Origin: Streptomyces sp. B3I8 | GTDB taxonomy: Bacteria; Actinomycetota; Actinomycetes; Streptomycetales; Streptomycetaceae | Direction: 5' to 3' | Assembly (NCBI RefSeq): GCF_030816915.1 | Contig: NZ_JAUSYN010000001.1 | Coordinates: 372,001 to 436,000 of the forward strand | Length of the DNA stretch: 64,000 nt | Part shown: positions 8,429-27,978 of the stretch, one piece after another | How positions within the stretch are numbered: position 1 is the first letter of the stretch | How the letters are laid out: each line of letters starts with the position of its first letter | Notes under the pieces: generated by a model | Seen by the model: only the letters and a program-made list of their open reading frames with translations | The model's database searches: none | What the model was told of the DNA's origin: nothing | Position numbers and translations under genes: made by a program

Positions 8429-8588
8429 GCCGGCGTTGAGCCGGTGTTGAGCCGACCGACCGAGGCGCCTGTGCCACCTCTCCCCTGCCCATGAGTGGCT
8501 GGCGCGCGAGCTGCCGCCCCTGTAGCGTGCGCCCGGGTTCGGTCGCCAGGGACCGACAGCCAAGCGGACAACAGCTCCCCAGCACACC

Positions 8589-8609
8589 GGTGATTGCCAC
8601 GCAATCACC
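8589..8609. other. parS-like palindrome between parB1 and parA1
   Basis: Arms GGTGATTGC and GCAATCACC flank CAC. Same family as the sites at 8098, 8705 and 9639. Confidence 0.6.
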
Positions 8610-8704
8610 ACTGCCCGACAGTCCCTTGAGCCCTTCCCCAACCCAGCATCCCTCTTTCGAGCCCCTCAAGGCGCGCCGCAGCACACCCCCTCGCCCCCTC
8701 TGGC

Positions 8705-8719
8705 GATTGCGGCGCAATC
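8705..8719. other. parS-like palindrome just before parA1
   Basis: GATTGCGGCGCAATC, ending 17 bases before the parA1 ATG, so ParB binding here could also repress parA1. Confidence 0.65.
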
Positions 8720-8736
8720 ATCCGTGGAGGATCACC

Positions 8737-10349: not shown

Positions 10350-11636
10350 TCAGGTGGACAGTGCCGTTTCACGCACGGCGCATGCCAAAGCGTGCAGGCC
10401 TTCATCGAGTTCGCTGAAGGTGGCGGTGAGAGGCGGCAGCAGTTTGACGACCTCGCCGTCCGGGCCCGAGTTCTCGACCAGGAGACCGAGTGTGAAGGAT
10501 CGCGCGGTGACCCGCGCCGCGCGATCCGCGTCGCGGAACTCCAAACCCCACACCAGGCCCCGGCCCCGGAACTCCTTGATGTCCTCGGGGTGATCGGCCT
10601 GGATTTTCGCCAAGGCGCGTTCGACCTGCTCGCCGTGCAGCAGCGTCTGCTTCTCCAATTGATCGTTGGCCCAGTAGGCCTCGAGCGCGGCAGTGGCGGT
10701 GACGAAGGCCGGATTGTTACCGCGGAAGGTGCCGTTGTGCTCGCCCGGCTCCCAGATGTCGAGTTCCGGCTTGAAGAGGCACAGTGCCAGGGGCAGCCCG
10801 TAACCGCTGAGGGACTTGGAGACGGTGACGATGTCGGGAACGATGCCCGCCTCCTCGAAGGAGAAGAAGGCGCCGGTGCGGCCGCACCCCATCTGGATGT
10901 CGTCCGCGATCAACAGCATGTCGTTACGCCGGCACACCTCGGCGAGTTCGCGCAGCCACTCGGGCCGGGCCACGTTGACGCCTCCCTCCCCCTGTACGGT
11001 CTCGACGATCACGGCCGCGGGGCGGTCGAGCCCGGAACCTCTGTCCGCCAAGAGCCGCTCGAACCATGTGAAGGGAGGGGCATCGTCCAGATAGCCGTCG
11101 TAGGGCATGGGGACGCCGTGCACCAGTGACACACCCGCCCCCGCCCGCTTGAAGGTGTTGCCGGTGACCGCGAGTGAGCCGAGGGTCATACCGTGGAACG
11201 CGTTGGTGAACGACACGACCGTCTCGCGGCCCTTGACCTTGCGGGCCAGCTTGAGCGCCGCCTCGACGGCATTGGTGCCGGTCGGGCCCGAGAACATCAC
11301 CTTGTACGACAGTTGCCGCGGACGCAGGATGATGTCCCGGAAGGCCTGCAGGAACGTGCGCTTGGCCGCGGTCGACATGTCCAGGCCCTGGGTGATGCCG
11401 TCACGTTGGAGATAGTCCAGCAACGCCCCCTTGAGGAGGGGATTGTTGTGACCGTAGTTGAGCGAGCCCGCCCCGGTGAAGAAGTCGACGTACGTGCGCC
11501 CCTGTTCGTCGTACAGGTAGGAACCGCTGGCACGGTCGAAGACGGTCGGCCAGCTGCGGCAGTAGCTGCGGACTTCCGACTCCAGGGTCTCGAAGACGTC
11601 CTGATCGGGTGCGGTGACCCGCTGATGACGGTCCAT
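10350..11636 (-). CDS. Diaminobutyrate--2-oxoglutarate aminotransferase (EctB-like)
   Basis: 428 residues, the usual length of EctB. A PLP fold-type I class III aminotransferase: FFTGAGSLNYGHNNP, MFSGPTGTNAVEAALKLA, NAFHGMTLGSLAVTGN, ADDIQMGCGRTG and the PLP lysine in TVSKSLSGYGLPLAL. These match diaminobutyrate transaminase, which makes L-2,4-diaminobutyrate from aspartate semialdehyde and glutamate. No ectA or ectC lies nearby, so ectoine is not the goal. ATG at 11636 has AAGGAT upstream. It points away from a set of NRPS-type genes starting at 14122, whose adenylation pocket has residues suited to a basic amino acid; it most likely supplies that enzyme's substrate. The reaction is well supported by family, the destination is inferred. 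Confidence 0.87.
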   Translation of the reverse strand: MDRHQRVTAPDQDVFETLESEVRSYCRSWPTVFDRASGSYLYDEQGRTYVDFFTGAGSLNYGHNNPLLKGALLDYLQRDGITQGLDMSTAAKRTFLQAFRDIILRPRQLSYKVMFSGPTGTNAVEAALKLARKVKGRETVVSFTNAFHGMTLGSLAVTGNTFKRAGAGVSLVHGVPMPYDGYLDDAPPFTWFERLLADRGSGLDRPAAVIVETVQGEGGVNVARPEWLRELAEVCRRNDMLLIADDIQMGCGRTGAFFSFEEAGIVPDIVTVSKSLSGYGLPLALCLFKPELDIWEPGEHNGTFRGNNPAFVTATAALEAYWANDQLEKQTLLHGEQVERALAKIQADHPEDIKEFRGRGLVWGLEFRDADRAARVTARSFTLGLLVENSGPDGEVVKLLPPLTATFSELDEGLHALACAVRETALST

Positions 11637-14121
11637 GGCACATCCTTGGAGGAGCAGGAAAGTGGACGGGTGAGCTCGAAAGCAGGGGCGGGCAGGCGAC
11701 GTCAGAGGGCCGCTGTGAGGTGACGGAGCCAGGCGGACGCGGGCCGGGCGACGACCTGGCCGGGCGGCTCGGCTGCGGACGGCCAGGATCTCCCGCAGGA
11801 GCGCCTTTCTCTGGTGCAGCGTGCCCGTACGGCCGGTCAGGGCCCGCCCCACACAGGGGTGGTGTCGAGCGGGCTGAGATCGCCGGACCGGTACGACGCA
11901 CGGCAGTGCAGCAGAACGCCGCCGTTTCCCCCGGGAAGCAGGGTGGACAGATCCGCGCGGACGGTGGTCCCGGGAAACTCCACCGTCACAGCGTCCTCGT
12001 GGCACACGACCTGAAGGGCGTCAGCCGATCGGCTGACGCCGATGATCAGGGCGTATCGGGGGGGCGAGGCCGTGTCGCCGCGCGGCGCTCCCTTGCTTCT
12101 GTCGCCTCACCTGGCGGGCTGCACGGAGGAAGGTGCCTTGGTCGGGCATGGTGCGTTGTCTCCTGCCTACGGGCCGACTCCCGGGTCTCGCGGCGGACGA
12201 GGCCCTGTTGGTGAGGACGGGCTGGGTCTCCGGGTCCGGGAGCCGGCTGTGAGGGCGGGCCGACGTCGGGGCCGTGGCGTCGGCCCCGTGGACGAGCTCC
12301 GGGTACTCCCTGTCCTCGGGGCGAGCGGCCGCCTGCTGTGTTCGCGTCCGACGATCGCGTCGGTGTGGCGTCCACATTGCGGATTATCTCTGGCGACCAT
12401 TCGCCCGGAGGTCGCGGTCATCGGGTCGAGGCGAGTATGGCGAAGGATACTCAAGAAGCTGTGGGGGAAAATGTTGACTCGCAGCTCGGAGGCGCCCGGT
12501 ACGTGAGGTGCGGCGGCCGTCGAGGGTGACCCGCTGCCGTTACCACTGTGAAAGCGGAAAGTTTCATGGCAGCGGATGCGGGGAACGTTTCGGCCAGGCG
12601 TATGTCTTGCGGCCCGTCAATCCACATTGCGCCACATCGCCGCCTCGCGGGTGGAATCGCACCCCTGTGGACCTCGGCGACTGTGGTGATGAGCTGCTGT
12701 GGGGGCGGGAATCCTTGCTGCCCCAGGTGATTGCAGGCTTCTGGGCAAGCCGCCGCCTTGGTGGCAATTGCTGTACAAGGGCCGAAACGGACGTGCGCAC
12801 TTCGCTGTCGCACCGCGTTGTACGCGAAGCCCGTTCGTAGCTTCAGTGCCACAACGATCCCAAGCACCCCTGTCCCCCGCAAGCCACTGTGTATGTTCCG
12901 GCTGCTTCGTGAGTCTGGATGGGTCACCGGTATCTGCGTCAGAAACGGGGGACGGACGGATCGCGCGGAGCATTCGGACGAAGGAATCCCAAGGCCGCTG
13001 GCAGGGGAACAGCAAGCGAATTCAGGGCAGGGTTCCCGGCCCCCTGCATCCGGGCGCCTCCGGGTCGGATGCGGGCGTCTCCGTCGCACCGAAGACGCGC
13101 ACGGTCATGGCCCTGCTGCTGGTGCACGTCGGCCAACTGGCTTTGGTCCACGCCTTCGTGCGGGAACTCCGGGGGAGCGGCCGCCGGCGACCGGGTTGCG
13201 GACCCTGCAGTACTGAACCGCAGAAAAACTCTGTGCACCCTCACCGGCCGCTCGCTCGCCGATGCCGCCCGGGTCGAGGACCGCTCGCGCACGACCATCA
13301 GCCGGACGGATACGCGCGTTGTGGGTACCGGCTCGCCCACATCGTCCCGCCCGCCCCACGCCCCGGCTCGGCGATGCCATCTCCCGCGCCCGGCGGCCGT
13401 TCCGGCTTCGCCCTTCGCCCTTCGCCCTTCGCCCTTCGCCCTTCGGCCTTCGAGCATCCAGGTCGGGCCGACAGGCGCCCTCCGAGCTGCGCCTCTGCCG
13501 TCTCCAGGCCCAACGTTGAAGGTTTCTGGGCTGGCTCCCCACAGGATCTCGACGGGGGCCTGCGAGGCTGACACCCGCAAAGGCCCCGCGACGGGGTGCC
13601 CGTTCGCATCCATCACCCGGAACAAGCCCGAGGGGGCCGAATGCATCCGGCCGGCACGGCGCCGAAGGGGAGCAGACCGGTGAGGCCTGGTCATGAACGA
13701 GCAGAAGGGCGTGGATGTGGCTGCTGCTGTTCCTCGACAGCCGCGACAGCGACAGCCTCGACGTGGCCGACGGCGACGAGAAAGCCTGCTGTGTCCTCAC
13801 CCCTGCCGACGCCTTGCTGACGAAGCCTGCCATCGGATTGTCACGGACTGCCGCAGCGCGACGGCCCCGGACGCCCGACCGGTGATCGTGGAACGCGTCC
13901 TCGCCAGGGACACGGGCTCCTCGCTCGACCAGGGCCACAACCTGCACATGCCGGCAGTGCACGGCAGGGCCGCGTACGGGAGGAGGCGCGCTACCGCGCT
14001 CTTCCCGCTCGGGCCGGGTTCGCCATGGATTCACTGTGCCGGCTGCCGATGGAGGCACATCTCCTCGTCGCGGTGACCGGTCGACCTTCATCACCCACCA
14101 CGGACGGACTCGGGAGAGACC
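11637..14121. other. Long gap without a convincing gene
   Basis: About 2.5 kb. Frames on both strands exist but none shows a recognisable domain or consistent codon use. Short fragments look like decayed genes, for instance LADAARVEDRSRTTISR near 13255-13310 and a frame near 13717-13830. A small frame at about 12436-12529 would give a 30-residue peptide starting MAKDTQEAVGENVDSQ. A 7-bp tandem repeat lies at 13406-13447. The region probably holds the promoters for the aminotransferase and for the adenylation gene. Confidence 0.5.
13406..13447. repeat. 7-bp tandem repeat (CTTCGCC)
   Basis: Five exact copies plus one variant, in a stretch without a gene. Likely slippage-prone; no function seen. 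Confidence 0.8.
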
Positions 14122-15807
14122 TTGAACAGCCAGGTTCCGCTCACGCGCCACACCGCCGATCCCGATCCACGGTCCCGACCCGAACTGCCCATGGCGCCCG
14201 GCGCGGTCACCCGGGCGCGAGAACTGGCCCTGCGCAACCCGGTGGCACTCGACACGACGACCGCCCTCCTCGACCACGTCATCCGGCACGCCCGGGTCCG
14301 CCCGGACGCCTGTGCCGTCCTGGACGGCGAACGCACCTTGACCTACGGGCTGTTGCTCGCCAGGGTCGCCTCAGCGAGAGACGCACTGCATGCCCGGGGA
14401 GTGCGGGCCGGTGACCTGGTCGCCGCCGTCGGGCCGCGCAGCGCGCACACCCCGGTCGTCTTCCTGGCTCTGGAGAGCCTCGGAGCGTCGTATGTGCCGA
14501 TCGACATGAGCTGGCCGGAGAACCGTGTCCGTGACGTGCTCGACCGCAGCAAGCCTGTCCTGTTGCTCGACTACTCCGGCCGCACAGCCTCGGCCGCGCG
14601 TGCGGCCGCCGACGCCGAAGGGCTCGGCACGCTGAGCCTGCCGACAGAGGGCAGGCCGGGCCCCGTGGACCAGCACCCGCACGGCGACCGCAGCGGCGAG
14701 ATCCGGTACACGATCTTCACCTCGGGCACGACCGGCCGTCCGAAGGGCGCCACCATCGAGCACCAGGGCCTGCTCAACCACCTGTGGTCCAAGACGGCCG
14801 ACCTGTCACTGGGACCCGAGGACGCGGTGGCCTTCTCGGCGCCGCTGGTGTTCGACATCTCCATCTGGCAGATGCTCTGCCCACTCCTGGTGGGCGGCAG
14901 GGTCGTCGTGATCGACGATGCCGCCATGCGCATGCCGCGCTGGCTGCTCGGCGCCCTGGACACCGCGGACGTCACCGTCGTGGAACTGGTGCCCACGGTC
15001 GTCGGCCGGATGCTCGAGGAGACGCGGCGCGCGAAGGGGCCCGCTCTGCCGAAACTGCGGTGGCTGCTGTCCACGGGCGAGGAGCTGTATCCCGCTCTGG
15101 CCGAGCAGGTGCTCGACATGCTCCCGCATGTGGCCCTCGTCAACGCGTACGGGCCCGCGGAGTGCTCCGACGACGTCTCCCTGCACACCGTGACCCGCGC
15201 CGACCTGGGCCGTCCCCGGCTGCCGGTCGGCACCCCCGTCGCCAACTGCACCCTCCAAGTCCTGCGCCGGGGGGACGACGGAACCTGGCAGCCGGCCGAA
15301 CCCGGGGAGAGCGGCGAACTGTTCGTCGGCGGCACATGCGTCGGGTCGGGATATCTCCATGACGCCGCCACCACGGAACGCGCCTTCTTCCGTGACCCCT
15401 TCGACCCGGATTCCTCGACCGGCCGGATCTACCGCACCGGCGACCTCGCCCGCGTGGAGGACGGGCTCCTGTACTACCTGGGCCGCAGCGATCGGCAGGT
15501 CAAGGTCGGCGGCGTGCGGATGGAACTCGACGAGATCGAGGCCGTCCTCAGCCGGCACCCAGCCGTCGAACAGTGCGCCGTCACCGTCTTCGACCAGGAC
15601 GTCGTGAGCGAACTGGTCGCCCACTACACCTTGCGCACCGAGGTGCTGCAGCAGGAGTTACGGCTGGCGCTCGGCGCGGCCCTGCCCCCGGTGATGGTTC
15701 CGCGGCGCTGGCAGCGGTGGGACGCGCTGCCCCTGAGCCGCAACGGAAAGATCGACTACCGGTCGCTCACGGCGGCCATGTCCACTACCCGGAAAGAGGC
15801 GCTGTAA
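14122..15807 (+). CDS. Stand-alone NRPS adenylation enzyme
   Basis: 561 residues from a TTG with GGGAGAG upstream. All adenylation cores are present: A3 IFTSGTTGRPKGA, A4 FDISIWQ, A5 NAYGPAECSDD, A7 YRTGDLA, A8 GRSDRQVKVGGVRMELDEIE, A10 PLSRNGKIDYRSL. There is no condensation or carrier domain, so it loads a separate carrier protein (17724). By-eye alignment to PheA gives pocket residues D-I-W-E-L-T-A-D-D-K; Glu278 and Asp331 are also found in ornithine and diaminobutyrate codes, so a basic substrate such as diaminobutyrate is plausible. A TTA leucine codon at 15658-15660 would make translation depend on bldA tRNA. It heads a co-directional run of genes to 26395. Confidence 0.88.
   Translation: MNSQVPLTRHTADPDPRSRPELPMAPGAVTRARELALRNPVALDTTTALLDHVIRHARVRPDACAVLDGERTLTYGLLLARVASARDALHARGVRAGDLVAAVGPRSAHTPVVFLALESLGASYVPIDMSWPENRVRDVLDRSKPVLLLDYSGRTASAARAAADAEGLGTLSLPTEGRPGPVDQHPHGDRSGEIRYTIFTSGTTGRPKGATIEHQGLLNHLWSKTADLSLGPEDAVAFSAPLVFDISIWQMLCPLLVGGRVVVIDDAAMRMPRWLLGALDTADVTVVELVPTVVGRMLEETRRAKGPALPKLRWLLSTGEELYPALAEQVLDMLPHVALVNAYGPAECSDDVSLHTVTRADLGRPRLPVGTPVANCTLQVLRRGDDGTWQPAEPGESGELFVGGTCVGSGYLHDAATTERAFFRDPFDPDSSTGRIYRTGDLARVEDGLLYYLGRSDRQVKVGGVRMELDEIEAVLSRHPAVEQCAVTVFDQDVVSELVAHYTLRTEVLQQELRLALGAALPPVMVPRRWQRWDALPLSRNGKIDYRSLTAAMSTTRKEAL
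15658..15660 (+). promoter_or_regulatory. TTA codon in adenylation gene
   Basis: In-frame TTA in the context QQELRLALG. In Streptomyces this codon is read only by the developmentally controlled bldA tRNA. Confidence 0.75.
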
Positions 15808-15809
15808 CC

Positions 15810-17012
15810 ATGGCAACTACAGGAACGGTGAGTGTGGCCGAGAGCGCGGACCGGGCCGGCGTCCCCGACCTCGCCGAGCGCCTCGCGGCGGTGACGGGCG
15901 TCGCCGAACAGCACCTGAAACGCACGGAGCGGGACGCGACATTCCCCGTGGAGGCGCTGGCGGAGCTGCGCAGCACCCGGCTGCTCGGCCTTCAGGTGCC
16001 CAGGGAGGAGGGCGGCCTCGGCGGCACCCTCGGTGACCTCATCGAGGCAGGCATGGAGCTCGGGCGCACCGACATGTCACTGGGCATGATCTTCGTGATG
16101 CACTGCCAGCAGGCCGAGGCCGTTGTGCGGCACGCCGCATCGCCCCTGCGGGAGGAGCTGATCCCGCTCCTCGCCGAAGGCAAACTGTACTTGGCGTCGG
16201 TGACCACCGAGAGCGGCAAGGGCGCCGACCTGTTCAGGTCCGAGGCGCCACTGCACGAGGCGCAAGGGGCTCTGGAGATCGACCGGACCGTGCCCATCTC
16301 GACCGGCGGTACCTCCGCCGATGGCTTCCTGATCACCATGCGCAGCCCTTATGCCACGGGGGACCAGCACGTCTCCCTCGTCTACGCGCACCGCCACCAG
16401 CTGCACGTGGAGGTCACCGGGCAGTGGAACCCGATGGGGATGCGCGCCACCCACAGTCCGCCGCTGAAGCTCAGCGGCCGTATCCCGGTCCACCAGGTGA
16501 TCGGTGAGCACGGCGCGTTCCACCGTGTCGTGCAGTCCGTCTTCGGCCCCCTCGCCCACCTGGGCTGGTCGGCCGTCTGGCTGGGCACAGCCTCCGGGGC
16601 CCTGTCGAGGGTGCTGCGCCTGCTGCGCGACCCGGCCGGCCGCAAACGCTTCGACCTGGGCTCGGAGCTGCTGCTCAGCAGGCTGTCCAGGGCCCGGCAG
16701 CGACTGGAGACCGTCCACGCGCTGCTGCGCCGGACCCAGGCACTGGCCGAGTCCGGGACGGACTGGTCGGTCACCAGTCACCAGCTGCTGCTGAACAACC
16801 TCAAGATCACGGCGGCCGAGGAGTGCTACGCCGTCGTCGACGAACTCATCGATGCGGTCGGCCTCGCGCACGGCTATCTCCAGGACTCGCCGACCCGCCT
16901 GGAGAAGGCCCTCCGCGACCTGCGGTCGGCCGCCCTCAACTACAGCAACGACCGGCTGCACCTGGCCGACGGGCGGCTCTGCCTGCTGGACCCGGACGTA
17001 CGGTTCGCCTGA
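15810..17012 (+). CDS. Acyl-CoA-dehydrogenase-fold flavoprotein, probably acting on the carrier-bound amino acid
   Basis: 400 residues; ATG two bases after the adenylation gene's stop, so coupled. The fold is that of acyl-CoA dehydrogenases: N-terminal helices (FPVEALAELRSTRLLGLQVP), middle beta domain (ASVTTESGKGADLF, WNPMGMRATHSPPLKL), C-terminal helical bundle. At the end, where medium-chain dehydrogenases carry the catalytic Glu (RDAKIYQIYEGT), this protein reads RDLRSAALNYSND with no Glu. That loss is typical of family members that act as flavin-dependent N-hydroxylases or nitroso synthases. A dedicated FMN reductase lies downstream at 19788. Alternatives: a dehydrogenase of an aminoacyl-carrier thioester (as for prolyl carrier proteins) with its base elsewhere. 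Family firm, reaction inferred. Confidence 0.82.
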   Translation: MATTGTVSVAESADRAGVPDLAERLAAVTGVAEQHLKRTERDATFPVEALAELRSTRLLGLQVPREEGGLGGTLGDLIEAGMELGRTDMSLGMIFVMHCQQAEAVVRHAASPLREELIPLLAEGKLYLASVTTESGKGADLFRSEAPLHEAQGALEIDRTVPISTGGTSADGFLITMRSPYATGDQHVSLVYAHRHQLHVEVTGQWNPMGMRATHSPPLKLSGRIPVHQVIGEHGAFHRVVQSVFGPLAHLGWSAVWLGTASGALSRVLRLLRDPAGRKRFDLGSELLLSRLSRARQRLETVHALLRRTQALAESGTDWSVTSHQLLLNNLKITAAEECYAVVDELIDAVGLAHGYLQDSPTRLEKALRDLRSAALNYSNDRLHLADGRLCLLDPDVRFA

Positions 17013-17119
17013 ATCCCGGGGCACCTCCCAGGGAGCCGGGCCCCACGTACTTCCCGACACGCACGCGGCCACCCGATCGCTGCCGCACCCATCCGCATCT
17101 CGACCTCCGAGGATCCCTC

Positions 17120-17683
17120 ATGCCTGGAAGCACCACCGAGACCCAGAACTGGAACACCGCCCTCAAGTACATCGCGGGGCGCAAAGCGGCCGAGGAATCG
17201 CTGGGCTTCGTCGCGCATGTCAGCGCGACCGTCCGTGACACCGAGGACGCCGCGGCCGTTGTCCCGGCGGTGGCCCGCACCTGCGTGCCGTTCTTCGCGG
17301 GCGCGGTCTCGTTGGACGCCGGGGCCACACACGACCGGGCCGTCTTCCACGGCTCGGACGAACTGGCGGACGTCGTCGAAGCGCTGCGCGCACTCGCCGC
17401 GCAGACGAAGGAGCGGCAGATCGTCATCAGCGAGCACGAGGGGCTGGCCGCCAGGACCGACCCGCGTCACCTCGAGCTTCTGCGCGAGGGAGGAGGCGAC
17501 TCGGCGGTGGTCATCTCCCTCGCCTACCGCGGGCTGTCCGGCGGTCACCTCGTCCTCGTACGGCAGGCCAAGCACCGCCGGGGGACCTTCAGCCCCGGGG
17601 ACCTCGCCCTGGCGTGCGAAGTGGCCGACCGGGTGGGGGCGTTCAACGCGCTCGCCGGACTGGCCGCCCGCTCCGGGAAGTGA
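17120..17683 (+). CDS. GAF-domain protein
   Basis: 187 residues. A single GAF-like domain: AEESLGFVAHVSATVRDTEDAAAVVPAVARTCVPFFAGAV at the start, ending HRRGTFSPGDLALACEVADRVGAFNALAGLAAR, the helix that usually closes GAF domains in signalling proteins. No output domain (kinase, phosphatase, HTH) is fused. GAF domains bind small ligands or haem and report redox state. Its place between the flavoprotein and the carrier protein is unusual for a regulator; it may be a ligand-binding helper or a sensor of the pathway. ATG at 17120 follows GAGGAT. Confidence 0.72.
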   Translation: MPGSTTETQNWNTALKYIAGRKAAEESLGFVAHVSATVRDTEDAAAVVPAVARTCVPFFAGAVSLDAGATHDRAVFHGSDELADVVEALRALAAQTKERQIVISEHEGLAARTDPRHLELLREGGGDSAVVISLAYRGLSGGHLVLVRQAKHRRGTFSPGDLALACEVADRVGAFNALAGLAARSGK

Positions 17684-17723
17684 CGAGGCCGGTCCGAACG
17701 CCGGACACCACCGAGGAGGGCTG

Positions 17724-17954
17724 ATGGCAGCGACCTGGCACGACGTACGCGAGTGGATCCTCGAGCGCAATCCCGACCTGACGGATCTGCAGCCCGAGAC
17801 CGACATCATCGACTCACGCATCATCGACTCACTGCAGTTCGTCGAACTGGTCCTGTTCATCGAGGACCTGCGCGGCACGGCGCTGGAATCGAACGACGTG
17901 AGCCTCGATTCCTTCCGCACCCTCAAAGGCATCGAGCAGACCTTCTTCCAATGA
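17724..17954 (+). CDS. Stand-alone acyl/peptidyl carrier protein
   Basis: 76 residues, typical for a free carrier protein. The phosphopantetheine serine is in IIDSLQFVELV, preceded by a near-duplicate IIDSR. Start ATG has CGAGGAGGG upstream. It would carry the amino acid activated by the enzyme at 14122 while the flavoprotein and other enzymes act on it, and be unloaded by the thioesterase that follows. It lies in the middle of the co-directional block, 41 bases after the GAF gene. Confidence 0.85.
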   Translation: MAATWHDVREWILERNPDLTDLQPETDIIDSRIIDSLQFVELVLFIEDLRGTALESNDVSLDSFRTLKGIEQTFFQ

Positions 17955-17979
17955 GGCCGGCACCGTGCGGGGAGTGGCG

Positions 17980-18714
17980 ATGAACACGAGAGCCGAACGA
18001 TCCCTGGTCATCCAGGGCGATGCCGACAAGGCCGACGACATCGTCGTGTTCCTGCCGCCGGCGGGCGCCGTCGCCTCGCCCTACCTCCCGATCGGCGCCC
18101 TTCTCCAGGACACCCTGCCCGCCGTGCACTGCGAGACGCCGGGGCGCGGCCGGCTGGCGAACGAGGAGGCACCCGGCTCCGTGCACAGCGCGGCCGACCG
18201 CTGGGCCGCCGACCTGGCCGAGATCGTGCCGGGCCGACGGCTGCACCTCTTCGGCCACAGCCTGGGGGCGCTCTACGCCTATGAAGTGACGCTCCGTCTC
18301 GAGTCGCGCCCCCACTGTGAGGTCGCGAGCCTGTCCGCGTCGGGCGCCCGCGAGCCGGGCAGCACTCCCCGCTCGCTGCTGGCCACCGCTTTCGCCGCGC
18401 TGCGGACGCCGGACCAGCAGCAGGGGGCGGGGGAGCACTGGATGGACCGGGACCTGCGTATGCGGGGCGAGTACCGGACCGCCCATCAGGTGGTGCGGGC
18501 CCCGCTGGCCCTGCTGTGCGGTGCCTCCGACCCCTTCGCCACACCGGCCGAGATGGAGCGGTGGAAGGACTTCACGAGCGGTCCGTACCTCGGAATGTTC
18601 ACCTTCCGCGGCGGTCACGACTACTACCTGTCCGGTGAGCAGGCGATCACGGACGTCATCTCCCGCGTCGTCGAACACAGCCGGCACCCCGAACTCATCC
18701 CGCGCTCCCAGTGA
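17980..18714 (+). CDS. Type II thioesterase (alpha/beta hydrolase)
   Basis: About 244 residues. The nucleophile elbow is GHSLGA, followed by the Asp in LLCGASDPFATP and the His in FRGGHDYYL, the normal catalytic triad of type II thioesterases. FLPPAGAVASPYLPIG forms the oxyanion-hole strand. ATG at 17980 is preferred over GTG at 17965 because GGGGAG sits just before it. In this setting, with a free carrier protein and no condensation domain, it probably releases the finished modified amino acid rather than only editing. It begins 25 bases after the carrier gene's stop. Confidence 0.85.
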   Translation: MNTRAERSLVIQGDADKADDIVVFLPPAGAVASPYLPIGALLQDTLPAVHCETPGRGRLANEEAPGSVHSAADRWAADLAEIVPGRRLHLFGHSLGALYAYEVTLRLESRPHCEVASLSASGAREPGSTPRSLLATAFAALRTPDQQQGAGEHWMDRDLRMRGEYRTAHQVVRAPLALLCGASDPFATPAEMERWKDFTSGPYLGMFTFRGGHDYYLSGEQAITDVISRVVEHSRHPELIPRSQ

Positions 18715-18785
18715 TCCGGCGCGTGGGCCTGCCCTCCCTGGAACCGATCCCTCCACCGCACCGCCGAACGAATGGGGTTTCAGAC

Positions 18786-19649: not shown

Positions 19650-19685
19650 CCCCTGGCGGGCGGGGCGGGGGCCATGCCCGCGCCC

Positions 19686-19745
19686 CGTCCGCTCCGTACC
19701 CGTCCGCTCCGTACCCGTCCGCTCCGTACCCGTCCGCTCCGCACC
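19686..19745 (+). repeat. Four 15-bp tandem repeats (CGTCCGCTCCGTACC)
   Basis: Three exact copies and one with a single change lie in the gap between the PAS gene and the FMN reductase gene. They could form weak secondary structure or be a slippage tract; they separate the two halves of the gene block. Confidence 0.85.
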
Positions 19746-19787
19746 CGCTCGCTTCTTCGCCCGGAACACACGACACCAGGGGTGGCT

Positions 19788-20321
19788 GTGTCTCACGTAT
19801 TGGTCATATCCGGCAGCCCGTCCGCGGCCTCCAGGACCGAAGCCGTCGGCGATCACGTGGCGCGGCGCCTCGCCGACGACGAGTGGCACGCCCACCACCT
19901 CAAGGTCCGCACCCTGCCCGCCGAACCGCTCGTGAACGCCGACACCACGCATCCCGCTATCGCCGAGGCCCTGGAACAGGTCTCCCGGGCCGACGGCATC
20001 GTCCTCGCCACACCGACGTACAAGGCGAGTTTCTCGGGCCTGCTCAAGACCTTCCTGGACCTGCTGCCCCGTTACGGATTCCGGCACAAGGTCGTGCTTC
20101 CCCTGGCCACCGGCGGCAGCGTCGCCCACGTCCTGGTCCTCGACTACGCGCTGCGGCCCGTGGTGCACGCGCTGGGCGCCCGGCACGTGGTGCAGAGCCT
20201 CTTCCTGCTCGACGAACACCTCGTCCGGCAGGAGGGCCGGCCGCACCTGCTCCCGCAGAGTGCCTGCCTGCTCGACGACGTCATCGAGCAGTTCCGCAAG
20301 TCCCTGATCTCGGCATCCTGA
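19788..20321 (+). CDS. NAD(P)H-dependent FMN reductase (SsuE-like)
   Basis: About 177 residues of flavodoxin-like NAD(P)H:FMN reductase. FMN loop VISGSPSAASRTEA, then ILATPTYKASFSGLLKTFLDLLPR and PLATGGSVAHVLVLDYALRPV, which match SsuE. Such enzymes hand reduced FMN to a partner monooxygenase. The start is a GTG at 19788 with AGGGG about 5 bases before; GTG at 19782 is also possible. The partner in this block may be the acyl-CoA-dehydrogenase-fold flavoprotein at 15810. It may instead serve the nitrate genes that follow, since it precedes them by 24 bases. Confidence 0.83.
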   Translation: MSHVLVISGSPSAASRTEAVGDHVARRLADDEWHAHHLKVRTLPAEPLVNADTTHPAIAEALEQVSRADGIVLATPTYKASFSGLLKTFLDLLPRYGFRHKVVLPLATGGSVAHVLVLDYALRPVVHALGARHVVQSLFLLDEHLVRQEGRPHLLPQSACLLDDVIEQFRKSLISAS

Positions 20322-20345
20322 GCCGGCCTTTCCCTGGAGCACACC

Positions 20346-21722
20346 ATGACTCATCGCCCCCGCAAGGGAGTGTGGCTCGTCGGCTGGGACCCGGAGGACG
20401 AAGACGCCTGGGAGCGATACGGCCGGCGACTCGCGCGCCGCAACCTCGTCCTCTCCGTGCTCGGCGAACACATCGGATTCTCCGTCTGGACGCTGTGGTC
20501 CGTCCTCGTCCTGTTCATGTCGCCCGATATCGGGCTCAGCTTCGACGCCGGAGACAAGTTCCTCCTCGTGGCCACGCCCACCGTCGTCGGCGCCTTGCTG
20601 CGCCTGCCCTACGGCTTCGCGGTGACCCGGTACGGGGGGCGGGACTGGACCGTGTTCGCCACCGGGATCCTCCTCGTACCGACCCTGCTCGCGCTGTACT
20701 TCGTCCAGCGGCCCGGCACGCCGCTGTGGGTGTTCCTGATCGTCGCCGCCCTCTCGGGCGTCGGCGGCGGGAACTTCGCGTCGTCGATGACGAACATCAC
20801 CGCCCTGTATCCGCAGCGCCACCAGGGGTGGGCCCTCGGCCTGAACGCCGGCGGCGGGAACCTGGGCGTCGCGGCCGTGCAACTCGTCGGACTCACCGTC
20901 ATCAGCGTGGCAGGCCGGACCCACCCGTCGTACGTTGCCGCGGCCTGTGCACCGGTGATCGTGCTCGTCGCGCTGCTCGCCGCGTGGCGGATGGACAACG
21001 TGGACGCGGTACGGGCCGCCCCGGGCACCCAGCGCGAGGCCGCCCGGGACCAGGACACATGGTGGATCTCGCTGCTGTACATCGGCACGTTCGGCTCATT
21101 CATCGGCTATGGCTTCGCCTTCGGGCTGGTGCTGCAGAACGAGTTCGACGCCGGCCCCGTCGATGCGGTCGGCTACACCTTCCTCGGCCCGCTGCTGGGC
21201 TCGGTGGCCCGGCCACTGGGCGGGCTGCTGGCCGACCGGCTGGGCGGGGCGAGGGTCACCTTCTGGAACTTCCTCGGCATGGGCGCGGGCACCCTCCTCC
21301 TGCTCGGCGCGGCCGAGGCCGATTCCTTCGCCCTGTTCGTGGCCGGGTTCACCGCCCTGTTCGTGCTCAGTGGCATCGGCAACGGCTCCACGTACAAGAT
21401 GATCCCCGCCGTGTTCGCGGGGCGCGCCCGGGAAGAGATCGCCGCCGGCCAGGACGCCGACGCCGCGTTCGCCCGGGCGCGCCGGCTGTCCGGGGCGGTC
21501 ATCGCCATCGCCGGGGCGGTCGGCGCGCTGGGCGGTGCCGCCATCGACATCGCCTTCTCGCTGTCGTACGCGGACGGCTCCGGCTCCGGTGCGCCCGCCT
21601 TCCTCGCCTTCCTCGGTTACTACGTCCTGTGCATGGTGCTCATCCGGGCCGTCCACCTGCGCCGGAGGCCCGTCGGGCACACGGCTCCCGCCGACCGCGC
21701 CGAGGCGGCCAGCCATGTCTGA
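20346..21722 (+). CDS. narK: Nitrate/nitrite transporter, NarK type (MFS)
   Basis: 458 residues, about 12 membrane segments. Typical nitrate-porter marks are the N-terminal WDPEDEDAWERYGRRLARRNLVLSV and two Gly-rich signatures, ALSGVGGGNFASSMTNI and VLSGIGNGSTYKMIPAVF, which line the nitrate path. It sits in the cytoplasmic membrane and would import nitrate (or exchange nitrate and nitrite). Its stop overlaps the start of the nitrate reductase gene by 8 bases, so transport and reduction are made together. Confidence 0.9.
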   Translation: MTHRPRKGVWLVGWDPEDEDAWERYGRRLARRNLVLSVLGEHIGFSVWTLWSVLVLFMSPDIGLSFDAGDKFLLVATPTVVGALLRLPYGFAVTRYGGRDWTVFATGILLVPTLLALYFVQRPGTPLWVFLIVAALSGVGGGNFASSMTNITALYPQRHQGWALGLNAGGGNLGVAAVQLVGLTVISVAGRTHPSYVAAACAPVIVLVALLAAWRMDNVDAVRAAPGTQREAARDQDTWWISLLYIGTFGSFIGYGFAFGLVLQNEFDAGPVDAVGYTFLGPLLGSVARPLGGLLADRLGGARVTFWNFLGMGAGTLLLLGAAEADSFALFVAGFTALFVLSGIGNGSTYKMIPAVFAGRAREEIAAGQDADAAFARARRLSGAVIAIAGAVGALGGAAIDIAFSLSYADGSGSGAPAFLAFLGYYVLCMVLIRAVHLRRRPVGHTAPADRAEAASHV

Positions 21723-23811
21723 ACCGCCTGCCCACACGTCGGACGTGGAGACGCACTGCCCCTACTGCGCCCTGCAGTGCGGTACGCGACTGAGCGGCGA
21801 CCGGGACATGGGCGTGAGGGTGCGCCCGGCCGATTTCCCGACCAATCGAGGCCGCCTGTGTCAAAAAGGCTGGACCGCGCCCGACGTCCTGGCCGCCGCG
21901 GACCGGCTGACCGTGCCGCTCGTGCGCGCACCGGACGGCCACCTGACCGAGACCACCTGGGACCGCGCCCTCGACACGGTCGCGGGACGCCTGCGGGAGC
22001 TGCGTACGCGATATGGCCCCGACACGGTGGCCGTCTTCGGCGGTGGCGGCCTGACCAATGAAAAGGCCTACCTGCTGGGCAAGTTCGCCCGAGTGGCACT
22101 GGGCACGAGACATATCGACTACAACGGGCGGTTCTGCATGTCGTCCGCCGCCGCGGCCGGCACAGCCGCCTTCGGCGTCGACCGCGGCCTGCCCTTCCCC
22201 GTCACCGACCTCGCGGCCGCCGACACGGTGCTGCTGGCCGGCGCCAACGTCGCCGAGACCATGCCGCCACTCATGCAGCACGTCGACACGGCGGACCTCA
22301 TCGTCATCGACCCCAGGTACACACCCACCGCCCAGCGAGCCAGGCTGCACCTCCAGCCCGCCCCCGGCACCGACCTCGCCCTCGCCCTCGGGCTCCTGCA
22401 CATCACCGTCGTCGACGGGCTCACCGACGCGCGGTACATCCGGCACCGCACCCACGGCTTCGAATCCGCCGTGCGCCGGGCGATGGCATGGTGGCCCGAG
22501 CGGGTGGAAGCCGTCACCGGTGTCCCGGCGAGCACCCAGCGCGCCGCCGCCCGGATGCTCGCGGCGGCCCCGAACGCCTACATCCTCACCGGCCGCGGCG
22601 TGGAACAGAACAGCCAGGGAACCGACACCGCCGCCGCGTTCATCAACCTCGCCCTCGCGCTCGGCCTGCCCGGCTCCGGCCACGGCGGATACGGATGCCT
22701 GACCGGGCAGGGCAACGGCCAGGGCGGGCGCGAACACGGGCAGAAGGCCGACCAGCTGCCCGGCTGCCGCTCCCTCACCGACCCCGGGGCCCGCGCTCAC
22801 GTCGCCCGCGTCTGGGGCGTGCCGCCCGAATCGCTCCCCGGGCCCGGGCGCACCGCCTACGACCTCCTGGACTCCCTCGGTCGTGACCAGGGGCCACGCG
22901 CCCTGCTGGTGTTCGGGTCGAACCCCCTCGTCTCCGCACCGAACGCCGCGCACGTGGCCGGGCGGCTGGCCTCGCTGGACCTTCTGGTCGTGGCCGACTT
23001 CGTCCCCTCGGAGACCGCCCGCACGGCCGACGTCGTGCTGCCGGTCACCCAGTGGGCCGAGGAGGAGGGCACGCTGACCAGCCTGGAGGGCCGGGTACTG
23101 CGCCGCCGCGCGCTGCTGACACCGCCCCCGCACGTCCGTACCGACCTGGAGGTCCTGCACGGCCTCGCCGTGCGACTCGGCGAACCCCCGCACCGATACC
23201 CGACCGCTCCGAGGGACGTCTTCGAGGAACTGCGCGCGGCATCCCGGGGCGGACTCGCCGACTACTCCGGCATCGACTACCGGCGTCTGGACGCCGGAGA
23301 GGTCCTGCACTGGCCCTGCCCCGCCACCGAGCCCGCGCATCCCGGTACACCACGGCTCTTCCTGGAGCGGTTCACGCACCCCGACGGCCGGGCCCGGTTC
23401 GCCGAGGTCGACCACCGCGGACCCGCCGAGACCGTCAGCGCCGCATACCCGCTGTACGCCACCACCGGCCGTGTCCTCGCGCACTACCAGTCCGGGGCAC
23501 AGACCCGGCGCGTCGCCGAACTGCGCGGTGCCGCCTCCGAACCGCTCATCTCCGTCCACCCCGACACCGCCGCCCGCGCCGGAGTGACGGCCCATGCTCT
23601 CGCCCGGGTCACCTCCGCACGGGGCGGCATGACAGCCCGGATCCAGCTCGACCCGACGATGCGCCCGGACACCCTCTTCATACCGTTCCACTTTCCGGGC
23701 GAGGGCAGCGCCAACCTCTTCACCAACCCGGCCCTCGACCCCCGCAGCGGCATGCCCGAGTTCAAGTTGAGCGCCGTGCGGCTCGAGCCGCTTCCGGAGG
23801 CCACACCATGA
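21715..23811 (+). CDS. Assimilatory-type molybdopterin nitrate reductase
   Basis: 698 residues. The N-terminal iron-sulphur motif is HCPYCALQCG with a fourth Cys at GRLCQKG; the molybdenum ligand is the Cys in YNGRFCMSSAA, as in the Nas/Nap branch. Cofactor-binding regions include VFGGGGLTNEKAYLLGKF, GRGVEQNSQGTDTAAAFINL and the C-terminal domain ending FHFPGEGSANLFTNPALDP. It has no signal peptide, so it is cytoplasmic. It reduces nitrate to nitrite with electrons from a flavoprotein, probably the next gene, whose ATG overlaps its stop (ATGA). No nitrite reductase domain follows. Confidence 0.9.
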   Translation: MSEPPAHTSDVETHCPYCALQCGTRLSGDRDMGVRVRPADFPTNRGRLCQKGWTAPDVLAAADRLTVPLVRAPDGHLTETTWDRALDTVAGRLRELRTRYGPDTVAVFGGGGLTNEKAYLLGKFARVALGTRHIDYNGRFCMSSAAAAGTAAFGVDRGLPFPVTDLAAADTVLLAGANVAETMPPLMQHVDTADLIVIDPRYTPTAQRARLHLQPAPGTDLALALGLLHITVVDGLTDARYIRHRTHGFESAVRRAMAWWPERVEAVTGVPASTQRAAARMLAAAPNAYILTGRGVEQNSQGTDTAAAFINLALALGLPGSGHGGYGCLTGQGNGQGGREHGQKADQLPGCRSLTDPGARAHVARVWGVPPESLPGPGRTAYDLLDSLGRDQGPRALLVFGSNPLVSAPNAAHVAGRLASLDLLVVADFVPSETARTADVVLPVTQWAEEEGTLTSLEGRVLRRRALLTPPPHVRTDLEVLHGLAVRLGEPPHRYPTAPRDVFEELRAASRGGLADYSGIDYRRLDAGEVLHWPCPATEPAHPGTPRLFLERFTHPDGRARFAEVDHRGPAETVSAAYPLYATTGRVLAHYQSGAQTRRVAELRGAASEPLISVHPDTAARAGVTAHALARVTSARGGMTARIQLDPTMRPDTLFIPFHFPGEGSANLFTNPALDPRSGMPEFKLSAVRLEPLPEATP

Positions 23812-25190
23812 ACCGGATCCTCGTCGTCGGAGGTGGCCCCGCCGGCCACCGCCTTGCCGGCCGGCTACGCCACCACGGCGCCTTGGGACCCGTCAAGATC
23901 CTCGGCGCCGAACCGTCTCCGGCCTACCACCGGCCCCTGCTCTCGTACATCCTCTCCGGGCAGGCGGACCCCGAAGCCCTGCGCATGCCGGCTCTGCCCG
24001 GCATCGAGACGCACTCCGGCGCGGCCGTCACTCACATCGATCGAGTGCGCCGCGAGGTGCACACGGCCGAGTCCGTCCACGGATACGACGTCCTGGTCCT
24101 CGCCACCGGAGCCCGCGCGGACGTGCCGGACATCCGTGGTGCGAGGGGCCCCGGCGTGACGGTGCTGCGCACCGTGGCGGACTGTGCGCGCGTCACGGGG
24201 GACACGGTGGCCGTCCTCGGAGGCGGGCCCCTGGGAGTGGAGACCGCCGCCGCCCTGGCGGCCCGCGGCACGGCCACGACACTGGTCTGCGCCGCGCCTC
24301 ACCCCCTGTACGGCCGGCTCGGCGAGAGCGCCTCCGCCCTGCTCACCGATGCCTTGCGCCGCGCGGGCGTCGACGTGCTCGCCGGGCGTACCGTCACCGC
24401 GCGCGAGCCCGGCCGTGTCCTCCTCGACGACGGGACCCGGGTGCCCGCCGACACCCTCGTTCTGTGCACAGGCGCGCATCCCGAGGTGCGCCTCGCCCGG
24501 GCGGCCGGGCTGAGGGTCCGTACCGGAATCGTCGTCGACGACCAGTTGCGCACCAGCGACCCCCGCATCCACGCCATCGGCGACTGCGCCGAGCACGAGG
24601 GCCGGACGGTGGCCGGCATCGAGGCCGCCTGGGCCCAGGCCGACAGCCTCGCGCGGGTTCTCACCGGGCAGGACGCGTCCGCGCACCGCACGACCCCCGC
24701 GGTGTTCCGCCTGCGTACCCGGATCGCCGAAGTGGCCTGCGTGGGCGCTGCGGGCGCCTTCGCGGACCCCGCTCTGCGCCGGCTCACTCTCGCCGACCGA
24801 GAAGGCGGGCGGTACGCCAGGCTCGCGATGAGTGGCGAACGTCTGGTCGCCGCCGTGCTGTTCGGCCTGCCGGAGGCCGTCGCCGCCGTCGGCGAACTGT
24901 ATCGGCGCGGCCAGGCACTGCCCTCCGACCGCCTTCAACTGCTCCTCGGCGGTCCGCCGCGACCCGCGTCGACGGACCTCGACCCGTCCGAGGACGCCGT
25001 GATCTGCCTGTGCAACAACGTGCAGCGCCGGGCCCTGGCCAAAGCATGGCGGGCCGGTGCCCGTACCGTCACCGCGCTCGCCGCCGCGACCCGGGCCACG
25101 ACAGGCTGTGGCGGCTGCGGCGGTGACGTGGCGGAGCTGAGCGCCCGATGGGCACGCGAGATGAGGTACGACGGAAAGCGGACGCCGTGA
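23808..25190 (+). CDS. FAD-dependent NAD(P)H oxidoreductase with BFD-like [2Fe-2S] domain
   Basis: 460 residues. Two Rossmann folds, FAD at ILVVGGGPAGHRLAGRLR and NAD(P) at VAVLGGGPLGVETAAALAARG; FAD-closing motif IHAIGDCAEHEG. The C-terminal 60 residues carry four cysteines (ICLCNNVQ and TTGCGGCGGD), the BFD-like iron-sulphur domain found in nitrate/nitrite reductase electron-transfer units. It is translationally coupled to the nitrate reductase (ATGA at 23808-23811), and is its likely electron donor. It also overlaps the next gene by GTGA. Confidence 0.87.
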   Translation: MNRILVVGGGPAGHRLAGRLRHHGALGPVKILGAEPSPAYHRPLLSYILSGQADPEALRMPALPGIETHSGAAVTHIDRVRREVHTAESVHGYDVLVLATGARADVPDIRGARGPGVTVLRTVADCARVTGDTVAVLGGGPLGVETAAALAARGTATTLVCAAPHPLYGRLGESASALLTDALRRAGVDVLAGRTVTAREPGRVLLDDGTRVPADTLVLCTGAHPEVRLARAAGLRVRTGIVVDDQLRTSDPRIHAIGDCAEHEGRTVAGIEAAWAQADSLARVLTGQDASAHRTTPAVFRLRTRIAEVACVGAAGAFADPALRRLTLADREGGRYARLAMSGERLVAAVLFGLPEAVAAVGELYRRGQALPSDRLQLLLGGPPRPASTDLDPSEDAVICLCNNVQRRALAKAWRAGARTVTALAAATRATTGCGGCGGDVAELSARWAREMRYDGKRTP

Positions 25191-26395
25191 CACGAACCCT
25201 GGTGGTCGCCGGACACGGAATGATCGGACACCGCCTCGCGGACCGGCTTCGCACCCTGGACACCTCACGCGACTGGCACATCGTGATCCTCGCCGAGGAA
25301 CCCCACCCCGCCTACGACCGCTCGGCCCTGTCCGGCTATCTGGCCGGCCGCAGCAGGGGCGACCTGACGCTCGCCGACCGGGACTTCCTCGCCGACGCCC
25401 GAGTGGAGCTGCGCCTGGCGACGCCCCTCGCCCGCGTCGACCGCACGGCACACGTGGTCGTGACGCGAGGCGGCGACCACATCCGCTACGACGCCCTGGT
25501 GCTCGCCACAGGCTCCCGCCCCTTCGTGCCCCCGGTGCCGGGCCGGGACCTCGCGCACTGCTTCGCCTATCGCACCTTCGAGGACTTGGACGCGATCCGC
25601 CGCGTGGCCCGCCCCGGCGCGCGGGGAGTGGTCGTCGGCGGCGGCCTGCTCGGCTTGGAGGCGGCTTATGCCCTGAGCCGACTGGGCGTGCGCCCGCACG
25701 TCGTGGAGACCGCGCCCCACCTGATGCCGGCGCAGCTCGACCCCGGGGCGGCCGAGGTGCTGCACCGCCGGGCCACCGAACTCGGCCTGCGCCTGCACTG
25801 CGGCACAGGGGTCGCGCACGTGCACGCCGGGCCCGACGAGACCGTGAGAGCAGTCACACTCGGTGACGGGACGGCGCTGGACGTGGACCTGGTCGTCTTC
25901 GCCGCGGGTATCCGGCCCCGCGACGAGTTGGCGGAACCTCTCGACCTGGCCCGCGGAGAGCGCGGCGGCTTCCTTGTCGACGCGCTGTGCCGCACCGCCG
26001 ACCCACGCGTCTGGGCCATCGGCGAGTGCGCCGCCGTACAGGGGCGCTGCCACGGCCTGATCGCCCCGGGATACGCCATGGCCGACTCCGTGGCCGCCCA
26101 GCTGACGGGCCGTGAGGGGCAGTCCTTCGACCGGACCGACGACGCCACGACGCTGAAACTTCTCGGTGTGCACGTGGCCACCTTCGGCGCCACGGTCCAC
26201 CCCGGCGGTCCTCGGCCGGTCGAGGTGACCTTCGCCGACGGCATCGCCCGCTACGCCAAGATCTTCCTACGGCCGGACACCGGCACTGTGCTCGGCGGCA
26301 TCCTCGCGCGCGACACCACCGGTTCCACCTCCCCACTCCGTTCCCTGGTCGGGCACCGGCCGCCCGCGGACCTGGAGCGGCTGCTCCTCCCCTGA
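25187..26395 (+). CDS. FAD/NAD(P) oxidoreductase, NirB N-terminal-like
   Basis: 402 residues from a GTG overlapping the previous stop. Two Rossmann motifs (LVVAGHGMIGHRLADRLR, GVVVGGGLLGLEAAYALSRLG) and the motif VWAIGECAAVQG. The sequence follows the flavin half of the NirB nitrite reductase large subunit (LVLATGSRPFVPPVPG), but stops at about 400 residues, well short of NirB's roughly 800. The BFD and sirohaem/[4Fe-4S] domains that reduce nitrite are absent and no nirD is near. It may feed electrons to another protein of this block. Last gene of the 14122-26395 co-directional run. Confidence 0.84.
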   Translation: MTRTLVVAGHGMIGHRLADRLRTLDTSRDWHIVILAEEPHPAYDRSALSGYLAGRSRGDLTLADRDFLADARVELRLATPLARVDRTAHVVVTRGGDHIRYDALVLATGSRPFVPPVPGRDLAHCFAYRTFEDLDAIRRVARPGARGVVVGGGLLGLEAAYALSRLGVRPHVVETAPHLMPAQLDPGAAEVLHRRATELGLRLHCGTGVAHVHAGPDETVRAVTLGDGTALDVDLVVFAAGIRPRDELAEPLDLARGERGGFLVDALCRTADPRVWAIGECAAVQGRCHGLIAPGYAMADSVAAQLTGREGQSFDRTDDATTLKLLGVHVATFGATVHPGGPRPVEVTFADGIARYAKIFLRPDTGTVLGGILARDTTGSTSPLRSLVGHRPPADLERLLLP

Positions 26396-27924: not shown

Positions 27925-27978
27925 GGCGTCATGGTCACCCGTGGCCGCCGTGTCCGGCTTCCGATAATCTGCCAACCG

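What the first reader, a model, noticed from the sequence alone, without database searches (positions are those of the whole stretch)
10350..26395. Candidate new pathway: carrier-bound diaminobutyrate, N-oxygenation and nitrate-derived nitrite
Seen: a diaminobutyrate aminotransferase; a stand-alone adenylation enzyme whose by-eye pocket residues include Glu278 and Asp331 (also present in ornithine/diaminobutyrate codes); a free carrier protein; a thioesterase; an acyl-CoA-dehydrogenase-fold flavoprotein without the usual catalytic Glu; an FMN reductase; a PAS and a GAF protein; nitrate uptake and reduction genes without a nitrite reductase. Known: L-alanosine is made by loading diaminopropionate on a carrier protein, N-oxygenating it and adding a nitrite-derived nitroso group. 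Inferred: this block makes a diaminobutyrate analogue (homoalanosine-like diazeniumdiolate or related N-N or N-O amino acid), with nitrite from nitrate instead of aspartate.
Basis: partly seen in the sequence, partly recalled or inferred. Interest (0 to 1): 0.92.

Follow-up and report, generated by a model that had tools for sequence, protein, structure and literature searches.

The report
Alanosine-type cluster with diaminobutyrate supply gene
A plasmid-like contig of a Streptomyces carries a gene cluster of the alanosine antibiotic family that seems rewired to start from diaminobutyrate instead of diaminopropionate, so it probably makes homoalanosine, a compound for which the searches made here turned up no genes.

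Summary
Nine proteins have relatives, 55-77% identical, at the cluster of Streptomyces alanosinicus, the published producer. In eight related loci, including that one, diaminopropionate synthase genes (SbnA/SbnB type) stand directly upstream of the adenylation gene. In the window and six relatives they do not. Four of these seven carry an EctB-type diaminobutyrate aminotransferase beside the cluster and one more has it 18 kb away, outside any ectoine operon; the window's genome has no SbnB homologue. Best reading: carrier-bound diaminobutyrate, N-hydroxylation, nitrosation, release as homoalanosine. Nitrate-derived nitrogen is not new: a review reports it for alanosine, and the same reductase block occurs in Sbn-type clusters. 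Substrate and product are inferred, not shown.

The parts
10350..11636 (-). Diaminobutyrate--2-oxoglutarate aminotransferase (EctB type), second close copy in the genome, outside an ectoine operon
   Evidence: TIGR02407 above cut-off; relatives beside the cluster in L059/L083, L039/L060 and L062, and 18 kb off in L081; no EctA/C/D match in the window or those flanks
12909..13272 (+). Decayed remnant of a SARP-type regulator
   Evidence: Only pieces of the SARP gene of relatives remain
13819..14090 (+). Decayed remnant of an O-methyltransferase gene that stands intact beside the adenylation gene in three relatives
14191..15807 (+). Stand-alone amino acid adenylation enzyme, code DIWELTADDK
   Evidence: AA-adenyl-dom 338 bits; code; 69% identical to the S. 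alanosinicus relative
15810..17012 (+). Acyl-CoA-dehydrogenase-fold flavoprotein without the catalytic Glu; presumed N-hydroxylase (AlaD/AlnG type)
17120..17683 (+). GAF-like protein, conserved partner of unknown role
   Evidence: Marginal GAF match; in 13 of 13 loci
17724..17954 (+). Free-standing carrier protein
17980..18714 (+). Thioesterase
   Evidence: PF00975 61.5 bits
18786..19649 (+). Tandem-PAS protein, used as cluster marker
   Evidence: PF00989; alignments A1 and A3; model mean pLDDT 75.5
19782..20321 (+). SsuE-type NADPH-dependent FMN reductase (start uncertain)
   Evidence: TIGR03567 above cut-off
20346..21722 (+). NarK-type nitrate/nitrite transporter
   Evidence: 282 bits to TIGR00886, below its cut-off of 311.7
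21715..23811 (+). Molybdopterin nitrate reductase (NasC type); a second copy (64%) lies on contig C2
   Evidence: Best match NF047855, 734.5 bits, below its cut-off of 1100; second copy
23808..25190 (+). FAD oxidoreductase with C-terminal BFD-like [2Fe-2S] domain, presumed electron donor
25148..26395 (+). FAD oxidoreductase like the N-terminal part of NirB, without siroheme domain
26713..27927 (-). MFS transporter, presumed exporter
   Evidence: PF07690; relatives
27931..28752 (+). Cupin domain fused to AraC DNA-binding domain (AlnA type), candidate N-N-bond enzyme or regulator
   Evidence: PF12833, PF02311, PF07883; HRHDxHQ and a later His invariant in 8 of 8 aligned and present in the S. alanosinicus copy, 71% identical

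Best explanation
An alanosine-family biosynthetic cluster on a 465-kb plasmid-like contig in which the precursor enzyme was switched from diaminopropionate to diaminobutyrate synthesis. Inferred steps: the EctB-type aminotransferase makes L-diaminobutyrate from aspartate semialdehyde; the adenylation enzyme loads it on the free carrier; the acyl-CoA-dehydrogenase-fold flavoprotein, fed by the FMN reductase, hydroxylates the side-chain nitrogen; NarK, NasC and the two FAD oxidoreductases turn nitrate into nitrite (or NO); the cupin-AraC protein, perhaps with the PAS and GAF proteins, adds the nitroso group; the thioesterase releases L-homoalanosine; the MFS protein exports it. Shown here: gene content, kinship with the S. 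alanosinicus cluster, an aminotransferase where other clusters have SbnA/SbnB, and absence of SbnB and CreE homologues in the genome. All chemistry is inferred.
For: Nine proteins of the window have relatives at the S. alanosinicus cluster: seven collinear ones 55-77% identical (L064), MFS and cupin-AraC 70-71% (L104); its CreE-like and CreD-like genes agree with the published cluster. SbnA+SbnB upstream of the adenylation gene in 8 of 15 loci; in the window and L059-L063 and L066 they are not there. Aminotransferase beside the cluster in the window, L059, L060 and L062 and 18 kb from it in L063; in none of the 8 Sbn loci within the fetched flanks. Eleven of eleven close EctB copies fetched from elsewhere in these genomes have EctA and EctC beside them; the five above have none in the stretches fetched. 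No SbnB homologue at E<=1e-10 in the genomes of the window, L059 and L061. Core-protein tree joins the window and L059-L062 (support 100), and the cluster aminotransferases of the window, L059, L060 and L062 group apart from the rest (85). No CreE homologue at E<=1e-40 in the window's genome.
Against: Ten-residue code identical to the diaminopropionate clade. Three of 34 pocket positions separate the clades (S213, A326, L334), but 55 alignment columns do so in all, so the pocket is not enriched. L061 has no aminotransferase of its own. In S. atratus (L063) an SbnB-SbnA pair (59 and 57%) with an adenylation gene of its own lies on the same contig, about 33 kb from the cluster, so there diaminopropionate is not excluded. 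The genomes of L060 and L062 also hold an SbnB homologue elsewhere (59%). Only SbnB, not SbnA, was sought in whole genomes. The correlation rests on one clade, not on independent events. No product is known for any of these strains from the calls made. The confidence was 0.66 before the S. atratus pair was seen and is lowered a little for it.
Confidence: 0.64

Rival explanations
1. The cluster still makes alanosine from diaminopropionate obtained by a route other than SbnA/SbnB, and the aminotransferase serves something else.
For: Identical ten-residue code in both clades; core conserved; in S. atratus an SbnA/SbnB pair lies 33 kb off.
Against: No SbnB homologue in the window's genome; the aminotransferase stands at or near the cluster in 5 of the 7 non-Sbn loci and the tree of four of them follows the core tree. 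No alternative diaminopropionate route was identified.
Confidence: 0.15
2. A diaminobutyrate-derived N-O or N-N product other than homoalanosine (a tailored form, or a building block for something larger).
For: O-methyltransferase beside the adenylation gene in 3 loci (L059, L060, L063).
Against: The methyltransferase is decayed in the window and absent in L061 and L062; it resembles the methyltransferase of a diazo-type cluster. No condensation domain was matched in the cluster proteins scanned.
Confidence: 0.15
3. The nitrate block is ordinary nitrate assimilation that happens to lie next to the cluster.
For: The block is missing in the fetched flanks of 5 of 15 loci; a housekeeping NasC copy exists on contig C2.
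Against: Linked in 10 of 15 loci, between or beside core genes; the window genome has no CreE homologue to supply nitrite; alanosine clusters with nitrate and nitrite reductases are reported in the review.
Confidence: 0.12
4. Pyrrole-type pathway: proline loaded and desaturated by the flavoprotein.
For: Same protein kinds (adenylation enzyme, carrier, acyl-CoA-dehydrogenase fold; weak PigA match, 34 bits).
Against: Catalytic Glu replaced in 40 of 40; best PDB match by sequence is a DszC-type oxygenase; acidic pocket residues; kinship with the alanosine cluster.
Confidence: 0.02

Closest known systems
L-alanosine cluster (aln/ala) of Streptomyces alanosinicus
   Same: Adenylation enzyme, acyl-CoA-dehydrogenase-fold enzyme, GAF-like protein, carrier, thioesterase, PAS and FMN reductase in the same order; cupin-AraC and MFS as a divergent pair
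   Different: SbnA/SbnB absent and an EctB-type aminotransferase present; nitrate reduction block instead of the CreE/CreD pair
Alanosine clusters with nitrate-nitrite reductases (Wang and Ryan 2023, known here only through the review PMC11705231; paper not held)
   Same: Same idea of nitrate as nitrogen source; L065, L067, L068, L069, L070 and G023 show SbnA/SbnB plus NarK, NasC and the FAD-BFD protein; whether these are the published strains was not checked
   Different: Precursor genes
Ectoine operon EctB
   Same: Aminotransferase family, 76% identical to the genome's own ectoine copy
   Different: No EctA, EctC or EctD beside it
Homoalanosine (natural product; listed with mass 163 in a compound table of PMC6387500, passage)
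   Same: The product expected from this gene set
   Different: No gene cluster for it appeared in the listings

Membership tests
L-alanosine (aln) cluster family | Adenylation enzyme, free carrier, thioesterase and AlaD/AlnG-type acyl-CoA-dehydrogenase-fold enzyme | tested here: met
   All four matched to S. alanosinicus L064
L-alanosine (aln) cluster family | AlnA: cupin domain with AraC DNA-binding domain | tested here: met
   27931-28752; S. alanosinicus copy 71% identical, beside its MFS gene
L-alanosine (aln) cluster family | Diaminopropionate synthesis genes (SbnA/SbnB type) | tested here: not met
   No match in the window; no SbnB homologue in genome
L-alanosine (aln) cluster family | Nitrogen source: CreE/CreD pair or nitrate/nitrite reductases | tested here: met
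   Nitrate transporter and reductase present; CreE homologue absent; nitrosuccinate lyase model only 322 against cut-off 650 bits
L-alanosine (aln) cluster family | Product L-alanosine | not testable with these tools
   Needs culture and LC-MS
Ectoine biosynthesis | EctA, EctC (and EctD) beside EctB | tested here: not met
   No match in the window; all three present at the chromosomal copy L077
Carrier-bound proline dehydrogenases (pyrrole pathways) | Acyl-CoA-dehydrogenase catalytic Glu | tested here: not met
   Ser, Gly, Lys or His at the place in 40 of 40; register of the motif rests on recall of IYEG
Diaminobutyrate-activating adenylation domains | Substrate preference | tested here: inconclusive
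   Code shared with the diaminopropionate clade

The most novel reading that the evidence does not exclude
The tandem-PAS protein, with the cupin, is a portable module for putting nitrogen oxides onto carrier-bound amino acids. It recurs in two distant clusters (G376, G648) with a carrier protein but with a P450 and without a match to the acyl-CoA-dehydrogenase-fold enzyme, and in G376 with a cupin that has no DNA-binding domain, which would make the cupin an enzyme and not a regulator. In the window's strain the plasmid nitrate reductase could also feed nitrite to the chromosomal diazo-type cluster, which lacks CreE/CreD.
Probability: 0.15. Interest if true: 0.82.

Novelty: new variant of a known kind. 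Interest (0 to 1): 0.6.

Why it matters
Diazeniumdiolate amino acids are rare, and which enzyme makes the N-N bond of alanosine is still called putative in the review read here. A sister clade that seems to swap only the precursor genes gives a natural comparison for substrate choice by the adenylation enzyme, the N-hydroxylase and the N-N-forming step, and a candidate gene cluster for homoalanosine. The three clade-specific pocket positions are a short list to look at.

Tried and rejected
Pocket code as proof of diaminobutyrate: rejected, identical in both clades, and clade-specific columns are not enriched in the pocket. Structure model of the adenylation enzyme: mean pLDDT 62, the part from residue 364 below 50; not used. 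PAS model: tandem PAS resembling many PAS proteins, heme-binding ones among them; no cofactor can be told from this. By sequence the PAS protein has no PDB match at E<=1. Plasmid collection, near mode only: 8 records with a partial match, none covering more than 8% of the query. The flavoprotein family also occurs elsewhere: 51 of 392 genomes match at E<=1e-30, but only 4 of the 11 neighbourhoods fetched carry this cluster (one of the other seven was a 9-kb contig and one a single 20-kb stretch); one of the others (G259) has carbamoyltransferase, condensation and ATP-grasp genes. Methyltransferase as part of the pathway: not favoured, decayed in the window and absent in two relatives; an intact relative (76%) lies on contig C2. 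In the DAT tree the place of the S. atratus copy is unresolved (53).
Full report
Place. The window is bases 372001-436000 of contig C1 of an assembly of 7,983,181 bases in two contigs; C1 has 464,794 bases, and the window holds ParA, ParB and P4-type primase genes on both sides of the cluster or before it, so it is plasmid-like. Its nearest relatives are Streptomyces; the genome itself is unnamed.

Observation. All named proteins were found by reading frames and profile searches. Corrections: the aminotransferase starts at about 11636; the carrier match to Pfam is weak, but its serine stretch SLQFVELVL is the same in 13 of 13 loci; the GAF match is below its cut-off. Next come an MFS gene on the minus strand and, divergent from it, a cupin-AraC protein (27931-28752), the type described for AlnA of alanosine in the review PMC11705231 (passages read).

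Kinship. A search of 392 Streptomyces genomes with the flavoprotein gave 51 with a match, the window's own included. Of the 11 neighbourhoods fetched, four (G106, G130, G080, G023) carry the cluster. A scan of the GTDB species collection with the PAS alignment gave 12 loci, L059-L070, among them S. alanosinicus JCM 4714 (L064). With the window this makes 15 distinct loci. A search of 394 genomes of the family found PAS relatives in 5: the window's own, G023, G456 (by its coordinates the locus L069) and the distant G376 and G648.

S. alanosinicus as yardstick. L064 has the seven collinear proteins at 55-77% identity, a CreE-like gene and a nitrosuccinate lyase gene over the model's cut-off (658 against 650 bits). 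Its MFS and cupin-AraC genes lie upstream (70 and 71% identical), with the same HRHDxHQ stretch in the cupin.

Precursor genes. Pfam calls the two genes upstream of the adenylation gene in L065 a PLP-dependent enzyme and an ornithine cyclodeaminase-family protein, the SbnA/SbnB kind that makes diaminopropionate (assignment recalled). They are present in L064, L065, L067, L068, L069, L070, G023 and G080, 8 of 15. They were not found in the window or within the fetched flanks of L059, L060, L061, L062, L063 and L066. L066 also lacks an aminotransferase and has Gly in place of the conserved Asp235 of the adenylation enzyme; it may be decayed. An EctB-type aminotransferase stands beside the cluster in the window, L059, L060 and L062. 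In L063 one lies on the same contig, about 18 kb from the methyltransferase gene (L081), without EctA, EctC or EctD in the stretches fetched (L081, L103). L061 has none of its own; its genome has one, ectoine-type copy (L092). Eleven close copies fetched from elsewhere in these genomes (L077, L089-L097, L105) all have EctA and EctC beside them, and ten of them EctD; the eleventh ends with its contig. The genome of L069 has only a 40% homologue.

Whole genomes. A search of 13 genomes with SbnB found no homologue at E<=1e-10 in those of the window, L059 and L061. Those of L060 and L062 have one each, 59% identical; that of L063 has five. One of the five forms, with an SbnA homologue and an adenylation gene, a set on the same contig about 33 kb from the cluster (L106). 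So S. atratus could supply either precursor, and it is weaker support than the others. The window's genome has no CreE homologue at E<=1e-40, and its best match to nitrosuccinate lyase is far below the cut-off (322 against 650 bits). It has a second NasC about 5 kb from a NIR_SIR protein on contig C2.

Trees. The concatenated core tree (A, ACAD, GAF, PCP, TE, PAS; 13 loci) puts the window with L059-L062, support 100. In the flavoprotein tree with relatives from other contexts (40 sequences) the same group has support 100 and stands next to L063 (87); the Sbn-type sequences lie between this pair and the other contexts, with supports from 67 to 100. This suggests, without proving, that the aminotransferase form is derived. 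The aminotransferases of the window, L059, L060 and L062 group apart from the rest (85); the S. atratus copy is unresolved (53).

Pocket. The ten-residue code is DIWELTADDK in 11 of 13 loci, the window and S. alanosinicus among them; L062 and L066 differ at one residue each. In the 34-residue signature (positions recalled) three positions separate the six loci window and L059-L063 from the six Sbn loci of the alignment and L066: S213/A, A326/T, L334/H. But 55 columns separate the window and L059-L062 from the Sbn loci over the whole alignment, so this is weak.

Nitrogen source. The nitrate block is linked in 10 of 15 loci: window, L059, L060 (only the last 78 residues of NarK matched), L063, L065, L067, L068, L069, L070 and G023; it is missing in the fetched flanks of L061, L062, L064, L066 and G080. 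In L067 and L069 the NirB-like gene was not found. CreE-like and nitrate genes occur together at L067, and at L063 through L081. So the block goes with both precursor types, and its use for alanosine is already in the review.

Fossils. Between the aminotransferase and the adenylation gene the window keeps pieces of a SARP gene and of an O-methyltransferase gene that are intact in L059 and L060. In S. atratus the same two genes bracket an AMP ligase, an FAD monooxygenase, a CynX-type transporter and an Rrf2 regulator; beyond the SARP gene follow proteins like 3,4-AHBA synthase and its aldolase, a CreE-like protein and a nitrosuccinate lyase, a cremeomycin-like diazo-type set (comparison with cremeomycin recalled). 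The window's strain has relatives of that set on contig C2 (L076, L088), without CreE and CreD. The methyltransferase beside the adenylation gene is therefore probably a left-over of such a neighbourhood.

Mechanism. From the anatomy and the published alanosine pathway (review passages) the most likely route is aspartate semialdehyde to diaminobutyrate, loading on the carrier, N-hydroxylation, nitrosation with nitrogen from nitrate, and release as homoalanosine. The nitrosating enzyme is only putative in the review too; the cupin is the candidate. In G376 a cupin without the DNA-binding domain lies beside an adenylation gene, a P450, a carrier and a PAS relative, which favours an enzymatic role.

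Literature. Searches for alanosine with biosynthesis, gene cluster, nitrate reductase or diaminobutyrate, for diazeniumdiolate with diaminobutyrate, for homoalanosine, and for N-nitrosohydroxylamine genome mining listed no paper whose title or start of abstract describes a diaminobutyrate-type alanosine cluster. Passages of four papers were seen (in one search only reference-list passages). The primary alanosine papers are not held, so the absence is not proof.

Odds.

Noticed in passing
L076, L088 (G000:C2 about 5452000-5466000): Chromosomal cremeomycin-like diazo-type cluster that lacks the CreE/CreD nitrite genes its S. atratus counterpart has; its nitrite would have to come from elsewhere, perhaps from nitrate.
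   Followed up: partly
L078 (G376) and L080 (G648): Distant clusters with PAS relative, carrier, P450, short-chain dehydrogenase and a protein that looks (in G376 by a weak Pfam match, in G648 by eye) like an aminoacyl-tRNA-synthetase-type carrier ligase; G376 also has a free cupin and an adenylation enzyme.
   Followed up: partly
L049 (G259), with G265, G251 and G054: The same flavoprotein family (65-67% identical) in a different conserved cluster with carbamoyltransferase, condensation and ATP-grasp proteins; may also oxygenate a carrier-bound amino acid.
   Followed up: partly
L106 (S. atratus, G396:C91 about 27600-33500): A second set with adenylation gene, SbnB and SbnA homologues on the same contig as the diazeniumdiolate-type cluster.
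   Followed up: partly
window 1559-9642 and 28983-31396: Two P4-type primase proteins and two ParA/ParB pairs around the cluster, as if two plasmid maintenance regions were joined.
   Followed up: no
window 19674-19781: Short repeat (PLRTR) at the start of the long frame of the FMN reductase, probably upstream of the true start.
   Followed up: no
L066: Streptomyces sp. CT34 locus with Gly at the conserved Asp235 of the adenylation enzyme and no precursor genes in the fetched flanks; perhaps decaying.
   Followed up: no
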